DNA of 64,000 nt from an uncultured Dehalococcoidia bacterium (GTDB lineage: Bacteria; Chloroflexota; Dehalococcoidia; Lucifugimonadales; Lucifugimonadaceae): the NCBI GenBank assembly GCA_958295935.1, contig OY282385.1:2025545-2089544 (forward strand), written 5' to 3'. This document shows, piece after piece, positions 4,833-14,127 of this stretch. A model generated the notes under the pieces. That model searched no databases. It was not told the DNA's origin and saw only the letters and a list, made by a program, of their open reading frames with translations. Every line of letters starts with the position of its first letter. Position 1 is the first letter of the stretch. The position numbers and the translations under genes were made by a program.

Positions 4833-5348
4833 CTACGGATAGAACGCCCCGATGGTCTGAACGACCCGGTGCAACTGCGCCTCGCTCACTTCCGGATACA
4901 TCGGAATCGACAGGATGGAGGCTGCAAGCCGCTCAGAAACTGGGAAATCGCCCGCGGCGTATCCGAGGGCCCGGAACGCCGGCTGGAGGTGCAACGGGAC
5001 CGGGTAGTGTATCCCGACGCCGATCCCGCTATCCGAAAGGTGTTGCCTCAGCTCTTCCCTACGCTCGCTTCGGACGACGTAGAGATGATAGACGTGTCTG
5101 CCGCCGGGCATCTGGGCGGGCAGAGTCAACCACGGAAATTCACCCAGCGACGCGTCATACTTCGCGGCGACCGCCCTCCGCGCCTCGTTCCACTCCTCCA
5201 TATGGCTCAGCTTTGCCCCCAGAACCGCAGCCTGGAGCGTGTCCAGACGGCTGTTGACCCCGAAGTATTCATGCAGGTACTTGTCGGTCCGCTCGTGATC
5301 CCGCAACATTCGCACGGTGGCGGCCAAATCTTCGTCGTTTGCAACCAC
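4833..5348 (-). CDS. DegT/DnrJ/EryC1 sugar aminotransferase, C-terminal part
   Basis: This is the C-terminal half of the aminotransferase whose N-terminal half lies at 5,207-5,938 in another frame. It begins [19 protein letters not shown] and contains the family motifs [12 protein letters not shown] and [18 protein letters not shown], ending with the usual SIPMYPE-type segment. Joining the halves across a one-base indel near 5,350 gives a full-length enzyme of about 368 residues. Confidence 0.8.
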
Positions 5349-5938
5349 CGCCCGGCGTCGCCATAGGCCCCCAGGTTCTTGGCAGGATAGAAGCTGAAGG
5401 CCGCCGCATCGCCCCAGCTTCCCGCTCTTTTGCCATTGTACTCGGCCCCATGCCCTTGCGCCGCGTCCTCGATGACTTTGATGGATTGTCGCCTGGCAAC
5501 CTCCATTATCTCCGCCATAGGCGCCGGCTGTCCGTACAGATGGACCGGAATGACCGCCTTCGTCTTTGGCGTTATAGCCGCGCTGAGGCCCTCGGCAGTC
5601 ATGTTGAAGTGGGCAGGGTCCACGTCAACGAAGACCGGCGTTGCCCCGACTGCAACGATGGCCTCGGCGGTGGCGATGAAGGAGTTGGCGGTGGTAATTA
5701 CTTCATCGCCAGGGCCGACCTCGATGGCTTTGAGCGCCAGGGTCAGGGCATCGGTGCCGTTGCCTACGCCAACCGCGAACGCTGCACCGCAGAAGGCAGC
5801 GAACTTCTGCTCGAAATCGGACACCTCCGGGCCGTTTATGAATTGAGCGCTAGCTAATACCCCATCAATTGCGGACCGGATTTCCGGTTTGATGGCGGCA
5901 TACTGCGCTTTCAGGTCGACCAGGGGGATGGGATGCAT
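5207..5938 (-). CDS. DegT/DnrJ/EryC1 sugar aminotransferase, N-terminal part
   Basis: This PLP enzyme transfers an amino group to a keto-sugar nucleotide. It shows PLVDLKAQY at the start, [30 protein letters not shown], and the PLP-lysine segment [15 protein letters not shown]. Right after this segment the frame is lost: one base appears to be missing in the run at 5,349-5,354, and the other frame continues perfectly with [10 protein letters not shown]. The frame beyond the shift is spurious. It resembles the 3-amino-sugar (WbpE/FdtB-type) enzymes, although the exact substrate is not certain. The gene is either a recent pseudogene or carries a sequencing indel. Confidence 0.8.
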
Positions 5939-7699: not shown

Positions 7700-8902
7700 T
7701 CACCAAATTTTCTTGCAGGCGCTTGCTCCATTCAGAGCGTCATTGTAAATCCCCAGTGTCCTGGCGGCAACGACTTTCCAGTCGAAGACCTCTTCCGCCA
7801 GGCGGCGCGAGCGCAGTCGCATGTCAGCCAGACGGGACGGGTCGGCGAGAATCGAGTCAAGCGTTCTTGCCAGGGAGCGGGCGTTACCCCTCTCGAAAGA
7901 CGCTCCGTTTCCATACAGCGTAAAGTGCCTTCCAGCAGCCTCATACGAGTGTACCAAGGCGGTTTGGCAGGCTATCGCCTCGATCATGGCTATGCCTTGC
8001 TCTCCGGGCCACACCGCTATGTCGGCAGACGACATATAGTTGGGCAGCTCGGCGTTGGGAACAAGCCCGGTCATAATGAGCTTGTTTCGCACCTCGGGGC
8101 GGGCTGTCCTGACAAGCCCTTCGGCCATGCTATGCACGGCCGGACCCACCAGCAGTAGGTACAGATCGTACTTGCCTGCAAGCGAATTCCAGGCCTTCAC
8201 CAGCACCTCCAACTCTTTTCCGGGGTCAATCCGTCCGCCAAACAGTATCACCTTGGCGTCGTCGGGGATTCCCAGCGACCACCGAGTCTCCAGCCTGGCG
8301 GGCTCGTCGTACTTGAAGGAGCAGGTATCGGCCCCCAGGGTGGAGTGGGCCATAAGAGAGTGCGGTATTCCGAACAAATCGTGAAGCAGATTCTCGGGAT
8401 CAGGGCCCAAGGGTATGTACCGCTTGATGACCGAGCCATAGTAGGGCAGAAACCCGCGCCGGAACAACTGGTAGTAGGCCCGTCGCAACGGGCCGCGAGG
8501 ATAAGTGAGGGAGTGCCAGAGGTGGCAGTCTATGACCGCCGGCAGGCCCAGGGCCTTGGCCGCAGACAGAGCCTGAACAGTCAAGGATCCGATGGGGCTG
8601 TGGATGTGCAGAATGTCCGGCCCGATTTCCTTCAGGGTCTTTTTCAGTCCCTCCAGCAAAAATTGAGTCCCCTTTCTGGCTTGGAACTTGGTCTTCAGCC
8701 GGTGTATACCGATACCCCGTTCTTCGTAAACCCCGGGTACGGCACCGGCCTGAAAGTGGGCCATCCCCTGCCACATGGGCAAGGGTAAAGTGGTGGTTAT
8801 GATGGAAACGTCAGTGCCCAGCCGGGCTTGAAAGAAGGGAAGGTGGTTCTCCTCATATCCCAACCCCTCCTGGTAGCTGACGATGATATGCGCGACCCGC
8901 AC
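7700..8902 (-). CDS. GT4-family glycosyltransferase
   Basis: The 400-residue GT-B protein starts MRVAHIIVSYQEGLGYEEN, has ILHIHSPIGSLT in the N-terminal domain, and KVILFGGRIDPGKELEVLV plus IAMIEAIACQTALVHS in the C-terminal domain. The usual first Glu of EX7E is shifted by one residue (GEQGIAMIE), but the pattern is otherwise typical of retaining glycosyltransferases. It lies 8 bases downstream of the Gfo/Idh oxidoreductase and likely adds a sugar to the same glycan. The donor sugar is unknown. Confidence 0.85.
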   Translation of the reverse strand: MRVAHIIVSYQEGLGYEENHLPFFQARLGTDVSIITTTLPLPMWQGMAHFQAGAVPGVYEERGIGIHRLKTKFQARKGTQFLLEGLKKTLKEIGPDILHIHSPIGSLTVQALSAAKALGLPAVIDCHLWHSLTYPRGPLRRAYYQLFRRGFLPYYGSVIKRYIPLGPDPENLLHDLFGIPHSLMAHSTLGADTCSFKYDEPARLETRWSLGIPDDAKVILFGGRIDPGKELEVLVKAWNSLAGKYDLYLLLVGPAVHSMAEGLVRTARPEVRNKLIMTGLVPNAELPNYMSSADIAVWPGEQGIAMIEAIACQTALVHSYEAAGRHFTLYGNGASFERGNARSLARTLDSILADPSRLADMRLRSRRLAEEVFDWKVVAARTLGIYNDALNGASACKKIW

Positions 8903-8910
8903 GCCGCCCC

Positions 8911-9453
8911 CTATCCTGCGACGCTCAGGCCGGGCGTCGATGACGGACGTACTTTGTGGAGTTCCGCCTCTATCCGCTCGATGGTTCTGACCACCGAGAC
9001 CGCATGTTGACCGCCGCTGATAGGCTCCGAGCCGAGCCGGATGCAGTCCAGGAAATGGCCCACTTCCCGGGCCAGCGGCTCCGGGTAGGGAATCTTTGGA
9101 GTGATGCTATCGCCGTACCGGTGCGATACCAGGAACCCGCCTGGGCTGTCGCTGTCTTTCGTGCCGCTGGAAATGTCCACCCCCATGTCGTAGATCACTA
9201 CTTTGGCCTCGGTCGAGACGTCGTCCAGGACCACCATCTTCCGGCTGCCCACCACCGTCACAGTTCTCACCTTGTGCGGGTCCAGCCAACTCAGATGGAT
9301 GTTGGCGAGCTGCCCTTCGCGGAAGCTCAGCGTAGAGAATACGACATCCTCGATGGAGGGCTGAAGGTATATCCCGCCCACTGCGCTCACGGTCTCCGGT
9401 TCGGACTCGAGCAAGTACTGGATGATCGATACGTCGTGGGGGCCAGGTTCCAC
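8911..9453 (-). CDS. Gfo/Idh/MocA oxidoreductase, C-terminal part
   Basis: This is the C-terminal substrate-binding half of the dehydrogenase whose NAD-binding half is at 9,387-9,962. The first meaningful residues are PHDVSIIQYLLE, followed by the beta-sheet domain (ANIHLSWLDPHKVRTVTVVGS) and the end GGQHAVSVVRTIERIEAEL. It continues the upstream frame after a one-base loss in the G-run at 9,437-9,442. Confidence 0.8.
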   Translation of the reverse strand: MEPGPHDVSIIQYLLESEPETVSAVGGIYLQPSIEDVVFSTLSFREGQLANIHLSWLDPHKVRTVTVVGSRKMVVLDDVSTEAKVVIYDMGVDISSGTKDSDSPGGFLVSHRYGDSITPKIPYPEPLAREVGHFLDCIRLGSEPISGGQHAVSVVRTIERIEAELHKVRPSSTPGLSVAG

Positions 9454-9962
9454 AGCACGTTCACGTCGGACCGCACTATCCCCAGGTTGAGCCGGCGACT
9501 GTAGACGTAGTGTACGTTGCCAAGACTGCCGGAATCTATCATGTCCTTCAGGTAGTTGACGGCCGAGTTGAACAGGAACGTGTGTCCGGCCATCAATACC
9601 AGACCCTTTTCGCTGGCGTAATCGACTAACTCCTGGGCTTCGTCCGCCCTGGTAGCCAGAGGCTTCTCGACGAAAACGTGTTTTCCGGCGTGCAGCGCCA
9701 GCCGGGCCGCCCGGTAGTGGTCGTTGGCAGGAGTGGCGATTACCACCGCATCGATGGAATCGGAATCGAATATGTCCGACTCATTGCCGGAGACGTGCAG
9801 ACCGGGGTGACGTGCGCTTACGTATTGCTGGGCGTCGGGCGACGAGTCGACCACCCGCTCCACCTCGGAGTCGCGGGATTCCATGAGTACGCGCAACAGG
9901 TTCTTTCCCCAATACCCGCATCCCAGTAGCGCCGTTCTCACCTGGCGATTGTGTGAAGTCAT
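9387..9962 (-). CDS. Gfo/Idh/MocA oxidoreductase, N-terminal part
   Basis: The N-terminal Rossmann fold reads TALLGCGYWGKNLLRV, then IDAVVIATPANDHYRAA and the family hallmark GKHVFVEKPLA. This is an NAD(P)-dependent sugar dehydrogenase of the WlbA/WbpB type that oxidises a sugar nucleotide before transamination, which fits the DegT aminotransferase in the cluster. Frame is lost after NVLWNLAP; the correct continuation (HDVSI) is one frame over. The joined gene (8,911-9,962) would encode about 350 residues. The shift lies in a five-G run, so an assembly error is possible. Confidence 0.8.
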   Translation of the reverse strand: MTSHNRQVRTALLGCGYWGKNLLRVLMESRDSEVERVVDSSPDAQQYVSARHPGLHVSGNESDIFDSDSIDAVVIATPANDHYRAARLALHAGKHVFVEKPLATRADEAQELVDYASEKGLVLMAGHTFLFNSAVNYLKDMIDSGSLGNVHYVYSRRLNLGIVRSDVNVLWNLAPTTYRSSSTCSSPNRRP

Positions 9963-9972
9963 ACCGCCCGTC

Positions 9973-12900
9973 TCATGGTCTCGTCTTGACGTCCCTCACC
10001 GGCGCGCTGTCCCTGGCCGGCGCCAGAAACCGCAGCCTGGGCGGGAACTTCTCCCGGAGGCCCCCGCTGACCTCCCGGCCTGGCATACCCAGAAGAAGCG
10101 GCAGGTTGAGTATTATGGCGGCGAAGATGATCAGGTCCTTGTGGTGGGCCAGACTGGCGGAGAACTGCTTTTGGATGAAAAGCGCGGTCAATACGAGGAA
10201 CACCGCCGCGATAATGTGAAAGTAGGGATTTTGCTCGTCGAGCTTGACGAAGAACTTCCAGAGGTTCCTTAGCACAAAGGCAAAGAATGCCAACAGAATA
10301 GCAAGCCCTGTCAGACCTAGCTCAGCCGCGGTCTCCGCAAAGATGTTGTGGGCGTAATTGTCCATCCCCGCGGTGCCTGCGCCCAAGAGGGGATTGGCCC
10401 TGAATTTGGTCAGCGCTTCTTGAAGCAGATCAAGCCTGGCCCCTATTACGTGCTGGCGACGACGCAGCTCTGCCTCATTCTCCTCATCTACAGGGTTGAC
10501 CAGCAGGGTCAGGGTCTCGAAACGGCCCTGATTGGGCAGCCTTATACCGGTCCGCGGGAGGCTAAACCCGGTGGTCGTATAGGCAGGCGCGGGGGTGGTC
10601 TGTTGCCCCGTGGCTATAGGGCCTACGGCTATGGTCTGCGCCCGGTAAGTCTCACCCCCCTTTTCATAGTACACGTAGGCGCGCAAGAACTTGCCCTCGT
10701 CATCGTCGGTCGGAGTGTAGCGGAATGACGGCGACACGCCGATTTGGTTGGTGTATGCCCAGCTCCAGGTGGTGTTGTCGGGCAGATTGCGAGCGTCGGC
10801 CCGGGGGTCGGCGCGCTGCCAGAGCCAGCGCTGAATCTGGTCGTCGTCATCCCGGTGGACCTGATCGTGGACCAGGTAGGCGGAGACGGGCTCTCCCACC
10901 CGCTTGGATTCAGCTTCGGCTCTGATACCGGCAACCCCCGGTTGCGGAACAGGCAAGGGATTGCTCTTGGTTCGCACGTCGGTATCGGCAACCCCCGGTT
11001 GCGGAACAGGCGAGGCGCTGCTCTTGGTTCGCACGTCGGTATCGGCAGCCGGCGGTTGCGGAACAGGCAAGGCGCTGCTCTTGGTTCGCACGTCGGTATC
11101 GGCAGCCGCTGCCGTTATCGGTCCTACGGCTACGGTCTGCGCCCGGTAAGTCTCACCCCCCTTTTCGTAGTAGACGTAGGCGCGCAAGAATTTGCCCTGG
11201 TCATCGTCGGTGGGCGTGTAGCGGAATGACGGCGGCACGCCGATTTGGTTGGTGTATGCCCAGCTCCAGGTGGTGTCGTCGGGCAGATTGGGAGCGTCGC
11301 CCCGGGGGTCGGCGCGCTGCCAGAGCCAGCGCTGAATCGGGGCGTCGTCGGCCCGGTGGGGCTTATCGTGGACCAGGTAGGTGGAGATGAGTTCTCCCAC
11401 CTGCTTTGGTTCAGATCCGGATTTGATACCGGCAATCCCCGGTTGCGGAACAGACAAGGCATCGGCCGCCGCCGCTATCGGACCTATGGATATGGTCTGC
11501 GCGCGGTAAGTCGCGCCATCCTTTTCGTAGTAGACGTAGGCGCGCAAGAATTTGCCCTGGTCATCGTCGGTGGGCGTGTAGCGGAATGACGGCGGCACGC
11601 CGATTTGGTTGGTGTATGCCCAGCTCCAGGTGGTGTCGTCGGGCAGATTGGGAGCGTCGCCCCGGGGGTCGGCGCGCTGCCAGAGCCAGCGCTGAATCGG
11701 GGCGTCGTCGGCCCGGTGGAGCCTATCGTGGACCAGGTAGGCGGAGACTGGCTCCCCCACCCGCTTCGGTTCAGCTTCGTTTTTGATACCGGCAACCCCA
11801 TCGACCACCGCCGCCGCTATCGGACCTATGGATATGGTCTGCGCGCGGTAAGTCGCGCCATCCTTTTCGTAGTACATGAATGCGCGCAAGAACTTGCCCT
11901 GGTCATCGTCCGTCGGGGTGTAAGTGAATGTCTCGGGCCTGTGGACTTCGCCCGCGGTCCAGGTGGTTTCGTCGGGGAGATTGGGAGCGTCGGCCCGGGG
12001 GTCGGCACGCTGCCAGCGCCAAGGCTGAGCCGGGTCGTCGTCGCCCCGGTGGCGCCTATCGTGGACCAGGTAGGCTGAGACGGTTTCTCCCACCCGCTTC
12101 GGCTCATCTACGGGTTTGATACCGGCAACCCCCGGTTGCGGAACATACAAGGTATTGCTCTCGATTCGCTTACCGGTATCGGCATCCGCTGCCGCTATCG
12201 GGCCTATGGATATGGTCTGCGCCCAGTAAGTCTCGCCATCCTTTTCGTAGTACACGTAGGCGCGCAAGAACTTGCGCCTGTCATCGTCGGTAGGGGTGTA
12301 GGTGTATAACAGCGCTCCGTCGATGTCGGTCCAGGTGGCGTCGTCGGGCAGATAGGGAATGTCGGCATGAAAGTCGGCCCGCTGCCAGCGCCAGGGCTGA
12401 ACCGGGTCGTCGTCCACCCAGTGGAGCAAATCGTCGACCAGGTAGGCGAAGATGGGATCTCCCACCCGCTTCCGTTCAGTTTCCGGTCTGATACCGGCAA
12501 CCCCCAGTTGCGGAGTAGGCAAGGCATTGCTCTCCGCTCGCTCATCGGTATCGGCAGACGCTGTCTCCATCTGGCCTATGGCTGCCGTCTGCGCGGGGTG
12601 AGTCTCGCCCTCCTCTTCGTAGTACGCGTAGGCCCGCAAGAACTTGCCTTGGTCATCGTTGGTCGGGGTGTGACTGAATGACAGGGGCACGCCGATTTCG
12701 CTGGCGTATGCCCAGGTCCAGGTGGCGTCTTGGGGCGGATCGGGAGCCTCGGACCGGGGGTTGGCCCACTGCCAATGCCAGGGATTCACCGGGTCCTCGT
12801 CGGTCCGGTAGAGATGATCGCGGACCAGGTAGGCGGAGATGGGCTCTCCCTCCCGCTTCGGTTCAGCTTCGTGGCTGATACCGGCAGCCGCGGGTTGCGG

Positions 12901-14127
12901 AGCAGACGAGGCATTGCTCTCGGTTCGCTCATCGGTATCGGCAGCCGGAGCCCCTATCGGGCCTATGGCTACCGTCTGCGCGAGGAGAGTCTCGCCGTCC
13001 TTCTCGTAATAGACGTAGGCGCGCAAGAACTTGTCCTGGTCATCGTCGGTCGGGGTGTAATTGAATCCCCGCGCCCCTTCGATGTCGCTCCACGTGGCGT
13101 CGTCGGGGAGATTGGGAACGTCGGTCAGGGGGTCGGCGCGCTGCCAGAGCCAGGGCTGAACCGGGTCGTCGTCGGCCCGGTGGCCCTTATCGCTTACCAG
13201 GTATACGGAGACGAGCTCCCCCACCCGTTTCGGTTCATCTTCGTGTCTGATACCGGCTTCGTTGACCTCCCCGGTCGGAAAGACCAATCCACTGGCGAAA
13301 ATCGTGTAGAACAGAAAAGCCGTCGTGCCGAAAGCAATCAGCAGAACCGGGAAATTGCTGAACCTGCGTGTGATGAGAGAAATCAGGATCGCGGTCAACA
13401 ACGCTCCGAATATAGCAACCAATGCCGATCGAGTGCCGACGATCAGCATGGTGTAGACCAGCGCCCCGGTCACCGCCAGACTCGGAATGATCCATATGCG
13501 CCGCCAACCGGACATGAGACCGAGGTGAAGCATTGCTCCCACCACGAACAGCATCCCCAACGGAACCGGATTGACGTTCAGGAAAGCCAGCCGCTCGCCC
13601 CATTCGGTTATCTCATAGGGCAGAAACCTGGCCAACGGATCGGGCAGTACTGAGTATGCAAAGGCCATGACGCCGATGACCGTTACTGTCGCCAGCAGCG
13701 TAATCAGGAAGCTCTTCACCCACCTGAACTCGACCAGGATGAGACGAGCCAGGAAGTAGGGCGCCAGCACCAGACCCGCGAACCGCAGACCCTTCTCCAG
13801 ACCAGCGGCTGAACTGCTGTTGAGCAGCATCAGCAAGGCAAAGCCGATCAGTACTAGATCCGCCCAAATAAGCTGGAACCTGATCTCCCTGGCAGCCCAG
13901 AAGTGGACGCCAACGCACAGGACTGCAACCAGCAGGAACACCAGCGTCAGGTTTACGACCCCGAACAGCAGCGTTCCGCCTCGAATCGCGTAGCCGAAGG
14001 CGAACAGGGCAAGCGCGATGGAGGCGCAATACATCGACAGGACGCCCACGTCGACGCCGGAAGCCTTGGAGGGCAACGACCCAAGCGTCGAGGAGACGGA
14101 GCCGACCCAAGTTGCCGCCCTGCTCAT
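9973..14127 (-). CDS. Wzy-like O-antigen ligase/polymerase with seven inserted repeat domains
   Basis: The 1,384-residue protein has an N-terminal block of about ten hydrophobic segments (residues 25-285) and a C-terminal block with the O-antigen ligase signature NPLLGAGTAG...AHNIFAETAAELGL followed by more membrane segments. Between them, about residues 290-1,130 form seven tandem domains of 105-165 residues, each with EPKRVGE, YLVHD, WQRADP, TYTPTDDDQGKFLRAY and a closing I/V-GPI. Such domains normally occur in secreted adhesins. The insert would sit in a periplasmic/extracellular loop of an enzyme that joins or polymerises lipid-linked glycans. Ordinary family members are about 400-500 residues. 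It is co-oriented with a flippase and a sugar dehydrogenase. Confidence 0.8.
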   Translation of the reverse strand: MSRAATWVGSVSSTLGSLPSKASGVDVGVLSMYCASIALALFAFGYAIRGGTLLFGVVNLTLVFLLVAVLCVGVHFWAAREIRFQLIWADLVLIGFALLMLLNSSSAAGLEKGLRFAGLVLAPYFLARLILVEFRWVKSFLITLLATVTVIGVMAFAYSVLPDPLARFLPYEITEWGERLAFLNVNPVPLGMLFVVGAMLHLGLMSGWRRIWIIPSLAVTGALVYTMLIVGTRSALVAIFGALLTAILISLITRRFSNFPVLLIAFGTTAFLFYTIFASGLVFPTGEVNEAGIRHEDEPKRVGELVSVYLVSDKGHRADDDPVQPWLWQRADPLTDVPNLPDDATWSDIEGARGFNYTPTDDDQDKFLRAYVYYEKDGETLLAQTVAIGPIGAPAADTDERTESNASSAPQPAAAGISHEAEPKREGEPISAYLVRDHLYRTDEDPVNPWHWQWANPRSEAPDPPQDATWTWAYASEIGVPLSFSHTPTNDDQGKFLRAYAYYEEEGETHPAQTAAIGQMETASADTDERAESNALPTPQLGVAGIRPETERKRVGDPIFAYLVDDLLHWVDDDPVQPWRWQRADFHADIPYLPDDATWTDIDGALLYTYTPTDDDRRKFLRAYVYYEKDGETYWAQTISIGPIAAADADTGKRIESNTLYVPQPGVAGIKPVDEPKRVGETVSAYLVHDRRHRGDDDPAQPWRWQRADPRADAPNLPDETTWTAGEVHRPETFTYTPTDDDQGKFLRAFMYYEKDGATYRAQTISIGPIAAAVVDGVAGIKNEAEPKRVGEPVSAYLVHDRLHRADDAPIQRWLWQRADPRGDAPNLPDDTTWSWAYTNQIGVPPSFRYTPTDDDQGKFLRAYVYYEKDGATYRAQTISIGPIAAAADALSVPQPGIAGIKSGSEPKQVGELISTYLVHDKPHRADDAPIQRWLWQRADPRGDAPNLPDDTTWSWAYTNQIGVPPSFRYTPTDDDQGKFLRAYVYYEKGGETYRAQTVAVGPITAAAADTDVRTKSSALPVPQPPAADTDVRTKSSASPVPQPGVADTDVRTKSNPLPVPQPGVAGIRAEAESKRVGEPVSAYLVHDQVHRDDDDQIQRWLWQRADPRADARNLPDNTTWSWAYTNQIGVSPSFRYTPTDDDEGKFLRAYVYYEKGGETYRAQTIAVGPIATGQQTTPAPAYTTTGFSLPRTGIRLPNQGRFETLTLLVNPVDEENEAELRRRQHVIGARLDLLQEALTKFRANPLLGAGTAGMDNYAHNIFAETAAELGLTGLAILLAFFAFVLRNLWKFFVKLDEQNPYFHIIAAVFLVLTALFIQKQFSASLAHHKDLIIFAAIILNLPLLLGMPGREVSGGLREKFPPRLRFLAPARDSAPVRDVKTRP
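10930..11100. repeat. 57-bp minisatellite in the Wzy-like gene
   Basis: Three head-to-tail units of 57 bases encode a 19-residue linker (DTDVRTKS...PVPQP) between repeat domains six and seven. The period is an exact multiple of three, so the frame survives copy-number changes. Confidence 0.8.
11161..11719. repeat. 199-bp exact direct repeat in the Wzy-like gene
   Basis: Bases 11,161-11,359 recur without a mismatch at 11,521-11,719, an offset of 360 (120 codons). They encode the cores of two neighbouring domains, which shows a very recent in-frame domain duplication or gene conversion. Confidence 0.85.

What the first reader, a model, noticed from the sequence alone, without database searches (positions are those of the whole stretch)
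9973..14127. O-antigen ligase with about 840 residues of adhesin-like repeats inside the membrane protein
Seven similar domains sit between two membrane blocks of a Wzy_C protein, so the enzyme is also a surface display scaffold. The repeats may bind glycans or neighbours. The usual loop of these enzymes is a few dozen residues, so this layout is very unusual, and the last four repeats are nearly identical.
Basis: seen in the sequence. Interest (0 to 1): 0.75.

Follow-up and report, generated by a model that had tools for sequence, protein, structure and literature searches.

The report
Glycan ligase with seven Ig-like domains
A bacterial membrane enzyme of the kind that builds surface sugar chains carries a string of seven antibody-like protein domains inside its active-site loop; its relatives carry one or three there, so the string is a real, growing add-on and not two genes joined by mistake.

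Summary
ORF 9973-14127(-) encodes 1384 aa: nine predicted membrane helices, seven Ig-like repeats (aa 291-1171), then the Wzy_C catalytic segment and three more helices. Three statements need correcting: the repeat region is about 881 residues; only the last three repeats are near-identical (81-87%); and one such domain in this loop is normal in this bacterium's relatives. The seven-fold array is the extreme case. All 8 orthologues found have the domain at this point (1,1,1,1,1,3,3,7 copies), so it is not an assembly join. In 250 genomes of the order, the close form of the domain occurs in 11. There it sits only on surface-glycan enzymes: 24 Wzy_C-type proteins of three unlike groups, in the same loop, and 9 PMT-like proteins, after the last helix. 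Extra copies arose within single proteins. The genome lacks LpxC and Omp85, so 'O-antigen ligase' cannot be literal and the loop probably faces outwards. Best reading: a WaaL/Wzy-like glycan ligase or polymerase whose Ig modules handle the acceptor or nascent glycan beside the active site, as the carbohydrate-binding module of EmbC does. Adhesion/display and passive spacing remain open. It is a new variant of a known kind; function is inferred.

The parts
9973..14127 (-). Wzy_C/WaaL-like membrane protein, 1384 aa, with a seven-domain Ig-like array in the loop between helices 9 and 10
13273..14127 (-). N-terminal membrane block, aa 1-285, nine predicted helices
   Evidence: hydropathy; 62-72% identical to 7 orthologues
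13429..13431 (-). Arg233 (GTR motif), aligned by phmmer with an Arg of WaaL structure 7tpg (sub-threshold stretch); invariant in 7 of 7 aligned orthologues
12955..13257 (-). Ig-like repeat 1 (aa 291-391)
12568..12885 (-). Ig-like repeat 2 (aa 415-520)
12196..12498 (-). Ig-like repeat 3 (aa 544-644)
11818..12126 (-). Ig-like repeat 4 (aa 668-770)
11476..11793 (-). Ig-like repeat 5 (aa 779-884)
   Evidence: structure model of this repeat
11116..11433 (-). Ig-like repeat 6 (aa 899-1004)
10933..11115 (-). 61-residue linker of three near-identical Ser/Thr/Pro/Ala-rich units (ADTDVRTKSS..PVPQP)
   Evidence: (57-base tandem repeat)
10615..10932 (-). Ig-like repeat 7 (aa 1066-1171)
10291..10464 (-). 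Wzy_C C-terminal half (profile 75-149), aa 1222-1279, holding Arg1231 and His1260
10348..10350 (-). His1260 (HNIFAETAAELG), aligned with His313 of WaaL structure 7tpg; invariant in 7 of 7 aligned orthologues
10072..10344 (-). C-terminal membrane block, three predicted helices
14256..16028 (-). VanZ-like domain fused to a Wzx-type flippase (Polysacc_synt), next door; a flippase is also next to the orthologue in L053, L030 and L031
16025..17485 (-). UDP-glucose/GDP-mannose dehydrogenase
7700..8902 (-). group 1 glycosyltransferase

Best explanation
A WaaL/Wzy-type (Wzy_C) glycan ligase or polymerase of a Chloroflexota (Dehalococcoidia) bacterium without detectable LPS machinery. SHOWN by sequence: twelve predicted helices; the catalytic Arg/Arg/His set conserved in orthologues; a tandem array of seven Ig-like domains inserted in the extracytoplasmic loop, directly before the catalytic segment; the same insertion with 1 or 3 copies in all other orthologues found; growth of the array by duplication inside single proteins; the gene in a surface-polysaccharide cluster beside a flippase. 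INFERRED: the flippase brings lipid-linked glycan to the outer face, this enzyme passes it to an acceptor, and the Ig modules are accessory domains that bind or position the acceptor or the growing chain beside the active site, as the carbohydrate-binding module of EmbC does for a GT-C enzyme. More copies would mean more binding sites or longer reach through the envelope.
For: Orthologues: 8 of 8 carry the domain at the same point, with copy numbers 1,1,1,1,1,3,3,7. Context: the 47 close copies found in 11 of 250 genomes of the order lie in 33 ORFs, all with predicted membrane helices, forming four homology groups. Three (8, 13 and 3 members) are Wzy_C-type with the domain in the same loop; one (9) is PMT-like with the domain after the last helix. 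On the domain tree host-group labels change 8 times for 33 first copies against a shuffled mean of 16.9, minimum 12: domains diverged with their own enzyme type, as expected of a working part of it. Catalytic residues R233, R1231 and H1260 are invariant in 7 of 7; H1260 aligns with His313 of WaaL 7tpg. Pathway neighbours: flippase, glycosyltransferase, UDP-sugar dehydrogenase, aminotransferase. Precedent: EmbC's C-terminal carbohydrate-binding module is needed for chain extension (abstract of PMC3044687).
Against: No glycan-binding signature was found: the repeats match no Pfam family (0 families for the first row; at best E 0.051 in 1 of 20 members), and the fold matches are generic Ig/Fn3 domains at Z 7-8, not carbohydrate-binding modules in particular. 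Pairwise dN/dS of 0.38-1.23 is not strong purifying selection. Another domain (D2) of the same proteins also sits on secreted dehydrogenases, so extracytoplasmic add-on domains here are not confined to glycan enzymes. The protein alone scores below the Pfam Wzy_C cut-off (23.2 against 31.7 bits; 31.7 with its neighbours in the frame). A full-length model of an orthologue failed (mean pLDDT 37.9), so the position of the domains relative to the active site is not modelled.
Confidence: 0.45

Rival explanations
1. Surface display or adhesion: the enzyme is a carrier, and the array reaches through the wall to bind host or neighbour surfaces.
For: The weakly related Ig-like superfamily occurs in giant proteins of the order, one of them with SCAB-Ig (180 bits) and cadherin domains. 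No LpxC or Omp85, so the loop may be directly exposed. A 7-domain array could be some tens of nanometres long (my estimate from Ig domain size).
Against: 28 of 33 carrier ORFs have only one copy, too short to reach outwards. All 47 close copies are on glycan enzymes; none is on an adhesin or a cell-wall-anchored protein. Catalytic residues are kept, so the enzyme part is not a mere anchor.
Confidence: 0.25
2. Passive spacer: the domain was fixed in the loop long ago, and extra copies come from slippage or recombination in a permissive loop, with little functional consequence.
For: Within-protein clustering of copies (5 label changes among 19 rows of multi-copy proteins; shuffled mean 11.0, minimum 8). 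dN/dS near 1 for several repeat pairs. A paralogue has, besides one Ig-like domain, a long acidic low-complexity stretch in the same loop (L105:1997-4378).
Against: Every orthologue keeps at least one copy (8 of 8). Core positions (WxWQRA, DDxGKFLRAYxxYE) are conserved across copies that differ at 13-47% of residues. The array is not interrupted by a stop or frameshift although two neighbouring genes are.
Confidence: 0.22
3. Assembly or joining artefact: two genes or repeat copies wrongly joined.
For: Two genes close by, an oxidoreductase and an aminotransferase, are split by frame changes that a relative lacks, so the assembly may hold small errors.
Against: The same architecture occurs in 7 other orthologues from separate assemblies, six of them named records, with 1 or 3 copies. 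The 4155-base frame is unbroken, and the repeats are diverged enough (73-93% DNA identity) to be told apart by reads.
Confidence: 0.03
4. Self-acceptor: the enzyme, like PglL O-oligosaccharyltransferases, transfers glycan to Ser/Thr of flexible low-complexity stretches, and the Ser/Thr/Pro/Ala-rich linkers of its own array are the acceptor, so that the array becomes a glycan-bearing brush in cis.
For: Linkers total 152 residues, 52% S/T/P/A, with a three-fold repeated unit before repeat 7. [quoted passage not shown] No lipid A pathway marker was found, so an acceptor other than lipid A is needed.
Against: Linkers are variable or short in single-copy orthologues. PglL-specific motifs were not tested. 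No glycoproteomic data.
Confidence: 0.05

Closest known systems
WaaL O-antigen ligase / Wzy_C family (PF04932, structure 7tpg)
   Same: Twelve-helix plan, catalytic Arg and His, long extracytoplasmic loop between helices 9 and 10, polysaccharide gene cluster
   Different: About 880 residues of Ig-like domains in the catalytic loop; no LpxC or Omp85 match in the genome, so no lipid A acceptor is expected
EmbC-type GT-C arabinosyltransferases with C-terminal carbohydrate-binding module
   Same: Polytopic surface-glycan enzyme with an extracytoplasmic beta-domain, proposed here to hold the acceptor; the 9 PMT-like carriers have the domain after the last helix, as in EmbC
   Different: Different enzyme family; the domain sits in the loop of the active site, is Ig-like and is tandemly repeated
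SCAB-Ig / AIR9 A9-type Ig-like domains (PF16709, PF23197) in giant bacterial adhesin-like proteins
   Same: A relative of the repeat in L113 passes the SCAB-Ig cut-off (34.0 against 27.6 bits); the repeat profile also finds weak matches in giant proteins
   Different: The window's repeats themselves match no Pfam family and sit in an enzyme, not in an adhesin
WadA (GT121 ligase fused to a GT25 domain)
   Same: A known precedent of an O-antigen ligase with an added domain (passage of PMC10920833)
   Different: There a glycosyltransferase domain is appended; here non-catalytic repeats are inserted in the loop

Membership tests
Wzy_C / O-antigen ligase superfamily (PF04932) | Pfam profile above the curated cut-off | tested here: inconclusive
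   23.2 bits for the protein against 31.7; 31.7 counting neighbours in the frame. Same-plan paralogues pass clearly (40.5 and 46.6 bits).
Wzy_C / O-antigen ligase superfamily (PF04932) | Conserved Arg, Arg and His of the active site | tested here: met
   R233, R1231 and H1260 invariant in 7 of 7; H1260 aligned with His313 of 7tpg, R233 with an Arg of 7tpg in a sub-threshold stretch. R1231 as second Arg is my assignment.
Wzy_C / O-antigen ligase superfamily (PF04932) | Twelve membrane helices with the large loop between helices 9 and 10 | tested here: met
   Hydropathy: 9 + 3 segments around the loop. A prediction, not an experiment.
WaaL in the strict sense (ligation of O-antigen to lipid A-core) | Cell makes lipid A / has an outer membrane | tested here: not met
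   No LpxC and no Omp85 in the single-contig genome; controls ring in E. coli and others.
WaaL in the strict sense (ligation of O-antigen to lipid A-core) | Ligase activity | not testable with these tools
   Needs biochemistry.
[quoted passage not shown] protein acceptor | not tested
   The motif models were not at hand.
Ig-like fold | Beta-sandwich of seven or so strands matching Ig structures | tested here: met
   One repeat modelled at mean pLDDT 72.3 (other four models 47-48), seven strands; the rows listed by VIA-align 2 are Ig or Fn3 domains, best Z 7.9, a level common among unrelated models too.
SCAB-Ig (PF16709) | Pfam match over 27.6 bits | tested here: inconclusive
   No match for the 20 members of A3 at E up to 1; the four-copy relative L113 matches at 34.0 bits.
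EmbC-like carbohydrate-binding module | Demonstrated glycan binding by the extracytoplasmic domain | not testable with these tools
   Functional analogy only.

The most novel reading that the evidence does not exclude
One lineage of Dehalococcoidia has fitted its surface-glycan ligases and polymerases with a private Ig-like module at the active site, and copy number in the loop works as a ruler: each added domain lengthens the reach of the enzyme to its acceptor, or adds a glycan-holding site, and so sets chain length or attachment distance. Strain-to-strain change in copy number would then retune the coat.
Probability: 0.12. Interest if true: 0.8.

Novelty: new variant of a known kind. Interest (0 to 1): 0.5.

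Why it matters
How Wzy- and WaaL-type enzymes choose acceptors and chain length is poorly understood outside model Gram-negative bacteria (my judgement). A natural series of orthologues with 1, 3 and 7 inserted domains, plus paralogues with 1, 2 and 4, gives a ready-made test of what an extracytoplasmic accessory domain does to a glycan ligase. It also shows that a loop holding the active site tolerates some 900 extra residues, and that automatic names such as 'O-antigen ligase' hide a different envelope. In two full-text searches of the held library I found no report of Ig-like domains in such a loop.

Tried and rejected
Gene fusion or assembly join: rejected because separate genomes have the same plan. 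Mobile element or phage origin: the only PHROGs match below E 0.001 was one unknown-function family (E 5.4e-5, no stretch passing on its own); not pursued. Chance repeat: excluded. Full-length structure of a single-Ig orthologue: model too poor to use. Foldseek against PDB with the single-repeat model: no match at E 0.001 or better. Profile of the repeats or of the orthologues against PDB sequences: nothing convincing. CDR-like variability: loops are more variable than strands, but against circular shifts this is weak (fraction 0.10 for the seven window repeats, 0.03 for 15 domains), so I make no claim. Sponge origin of the carrier genomes: suspected from the record style, but no paper holding the record prefix was found, and PMC12586988 does not mention it; I leave it open. 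Carbohydrate-binding module families were absent from the fold table rows shown; this excludes nothing.
Full report
WHAT IS THERE. Window 9973-14127(-) is one open frame of 1384 codons. Hydropathy gives nine segments before residue 285 and three after residue 1262. Between them lie seven repeats of 101-106 residues at aa 291-391, 415-520, 544-644, 668-770, 779-884, 899-1004 and 1066-1171. Identity between repeats is 53-87% in protein and 73-93% in DNA; repeats 5-7 form the close set (81-87%). Repeat 4 is further off, so 'the last four nearly identical' should read three. First to last repeat is 881 residues. The linkers (152 residues in all) are 52% Ser/Thr/Pro/Ala, and one holds a 57-base unit three times. 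No repeat contains cysteine.

THE ENZYME PART. Pfam gives Wzy_C at aa 1222-1279, 23.2 bits against a cut-off of 31.7, 31.7 when neighbouring pieces in the frame are counted. The best match to a solved structure is WaaL 7tpg (E 0.16), with H1260 opposite His313 and, in a sub-threshold stretch, R233 opposite an Arg. R233, R1231 and H1260 are invariant in 7 of 7 aligned orthologues. E. coli WaaL R215, R288 and H338 and PglL R224, R298 and H349 are the functional set reported (passage of PMC3643930); that R1231 is the second Arg is my assignment. The array therefore sits between the first Arg and the rest of the active site, in the loop where the catalytic residues of this enzyme class lie.

NEIGHBOURS. 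Upstream is a VanZ-like domain fused to a Wzx-type flippase, then a UDP-sugar dehydrogenase; downstream are an oxidoreductase, a group 1 glycosyltransferase and a DegT aminotransferase. The orthologous locus L053 keeps the flippase, oxidoreductase, glycosyltransferase and aminotransferase, and a flippase is next to the orthologue in L030 and L031 too. This is a surface-polysaccharide cluster.

RELATIVES. A search of 100 relatives found matches in 9; five of them (G065, G070, G074, G082, G092) hold full orthologues. With G201 there are 8 orthologues including the window's. All 8 have the Ig-like domain at the same point: 1 copy in five, 3 in L053 and in L105:14105-16600, 7 in the window. Their N-terminal blocks are 62-72% identical to the window's.

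HOW WIDESPREAD. A profile of 20 domains (A3) was run over 250 genomes of the order: 34 match at E 0.001 or better, but strong matches (98 bits or more) occur in only 11, all assemblies of one to six contigs (the list of weak rows was cut by the tool and at most 19 candidates a genome were scored). Over 400 genomes of the phylum 6 match, only the window's own strongly. The strong rows are 47 distinct domains after leaving out two rows of G201 that repeat the scores of two others on a second contig. They lie in 33 ORFs. A further weak hit (20 bits) in L034 was left out. The 33 fall into four groups by the sequence before the first domain: 8 (the window's), 13, 3 and 9 members. The first three are Wzy_C-type. 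Pfam was run on 18 of these 24: 17 and the window's own; every one has a Wzy_C match at E 0.001 or better, several below the cut-off. The other six rest on homology. The fourth group is PMT-like: 5 of 9 were scanned, 3 with PMT matches of 20-24 bits around the cut-off of 22.7 and 2 without a match. All 33 have predicted helices. In 28 the domain is single; the others have 2, 3, 3, 4 and 7.

CONTROL. In 121 Chloroflexota genomes, every Wzy_C row listed covers the profile from position 7 or earlier to 146 or later within 573 bases, that is, without a large insert. That list is cut and favours uninterrupted domains, so it is an indication, not a rate.

EVOLUTION. On a tree of the 47 domains, repeats 5-7 of the window, repeats 2-3 of L053 and repeats 1-2 of L113 form supported groups. 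Labels of the five multi-copy proteins change 5 times among 19 rows (shuffled mean 11.0, minimum 8), and host-group labels 8 times among 33 first copies (shuffled mean 16.9, minimum 12). So the domain has mostly diverged with its enzyme type and multiplied inside single proteins more than once. The deeper forks are weak. Pairwise dN/dS (Nei-Gojobori, no test of significance) runs from 0.38 to 1.23.

FOLD. One repeat was modelled at mean pLDDT 72.3 with seven strands; the other four models of the run were near 47-48. VIA-align 2 lists Ig and Fn3 domains, best Z 7.9, which the tool warns is a common level. The repeats match no Pfam family, but the four-copy relative L113 passes SCAB-Ig (34.0 bits), and a 3610-aa protein of G063 that holds weakly related domains matches SCAB-Ig (180 bits) beside cadherin domains. 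The repeat is best called Ig-like, of the SCAB-Ig/A9 sort. The single-copy orthologue as a whole could not be modelled (mean pLDDT 37.9).

ENVELOPE. No LpxC and no Omp85 match in the single-contig genome (95% complete), with positive controls ringing. 'O-antigen ligase' therefore cannot mean ligation to lipid A here, and the loop probably faces outwards from a single membrane.

MECHANISM. Best supported: lipid-linked glycan is flipped by the neighbouring flippase; this enzyme transfers or polymerises it; the Ig modules hold the acceptor or chain near the active site or extend the enzyme's reach. The enzyme part and the topology rest on homology and prediction. The role of the modules is inferred from their exclusive association with glycan enzymes and from EmbC, where Trp changes in its carbohydrate-binding domain inhibit chain extension (abstract of PMC3044687). 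Display or adhesion, passive spacing and self-glycosylation are kept as rivals.

PRINT. 'O-antigen ligase' with 'Ig-like domain' gave 2 papers whose titles and abstracts concern other matters; a wider search gave 4, of which I read passages of PMC5898192 only. WadA shows that O-antigen ligases can carry an appended domain (passage of PMC10920833).

VERDICT. The finding is real and better than an oddity, because it is the end of a graded series; it is a new variant of a known enzyme kind, with function still to be tested.

Noticed in passing
L006:6930-12485(+) (own genome, contig position about 2262929-2268484): A second giant Wzy_C protein, 1851 aa, ends in ten copies of an unrelated domain, D2 (W/FDVYLS...C...GKC...LPDYP...TGQ), with two conserved cysteines and no convincing Pfam family.
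   Followed up: partly
order-wide; own genome 43 matches: D2 is found in 12 of 250 genomes of the order: the same 11 that carry the strong Ig-like domain, plus G105. It sits C-terminally on PMT-like membrane proteins and on secreted-looking glucose/sorbosone dehydrogenase-cytochrome c proteins. It looks like a private extracytoplasmic sorting or binding domain of this lineage.
   Followed up: partly
window 8911-9962 and 4833-5938 (-): An oxidoreductase gene (frame change near 9438-9444) and a DegT aminotransferase gene (frame change near 5351-5438) are split here but whole in L053, at 72-84% identity on both sides: recent pseudogenes or assembly errors.
   Followed up: partly
L105:1997-4378(+): A paralogue has one Ig-like domain followed, in the same loop, by a long acidic low-complexity stretch, another way of lengthening this loop.
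   Followed up: no
L042:3090-13922(-): A 3610-aa protein with SCAB-Ig and cadherin domains in a related genome, a likely giant adhesin.
   Followed up: partly
60 genomes of the window's own family: Of 60 same-family genomes only one has even a marginal match to the protein (E 7e-4), whereas genomes of other families of the order hold 60-70% identical orthologues: a patchy spread that suggests transfer, habitat-linked keeping, or fragmented assemblies.
   Followed up: no
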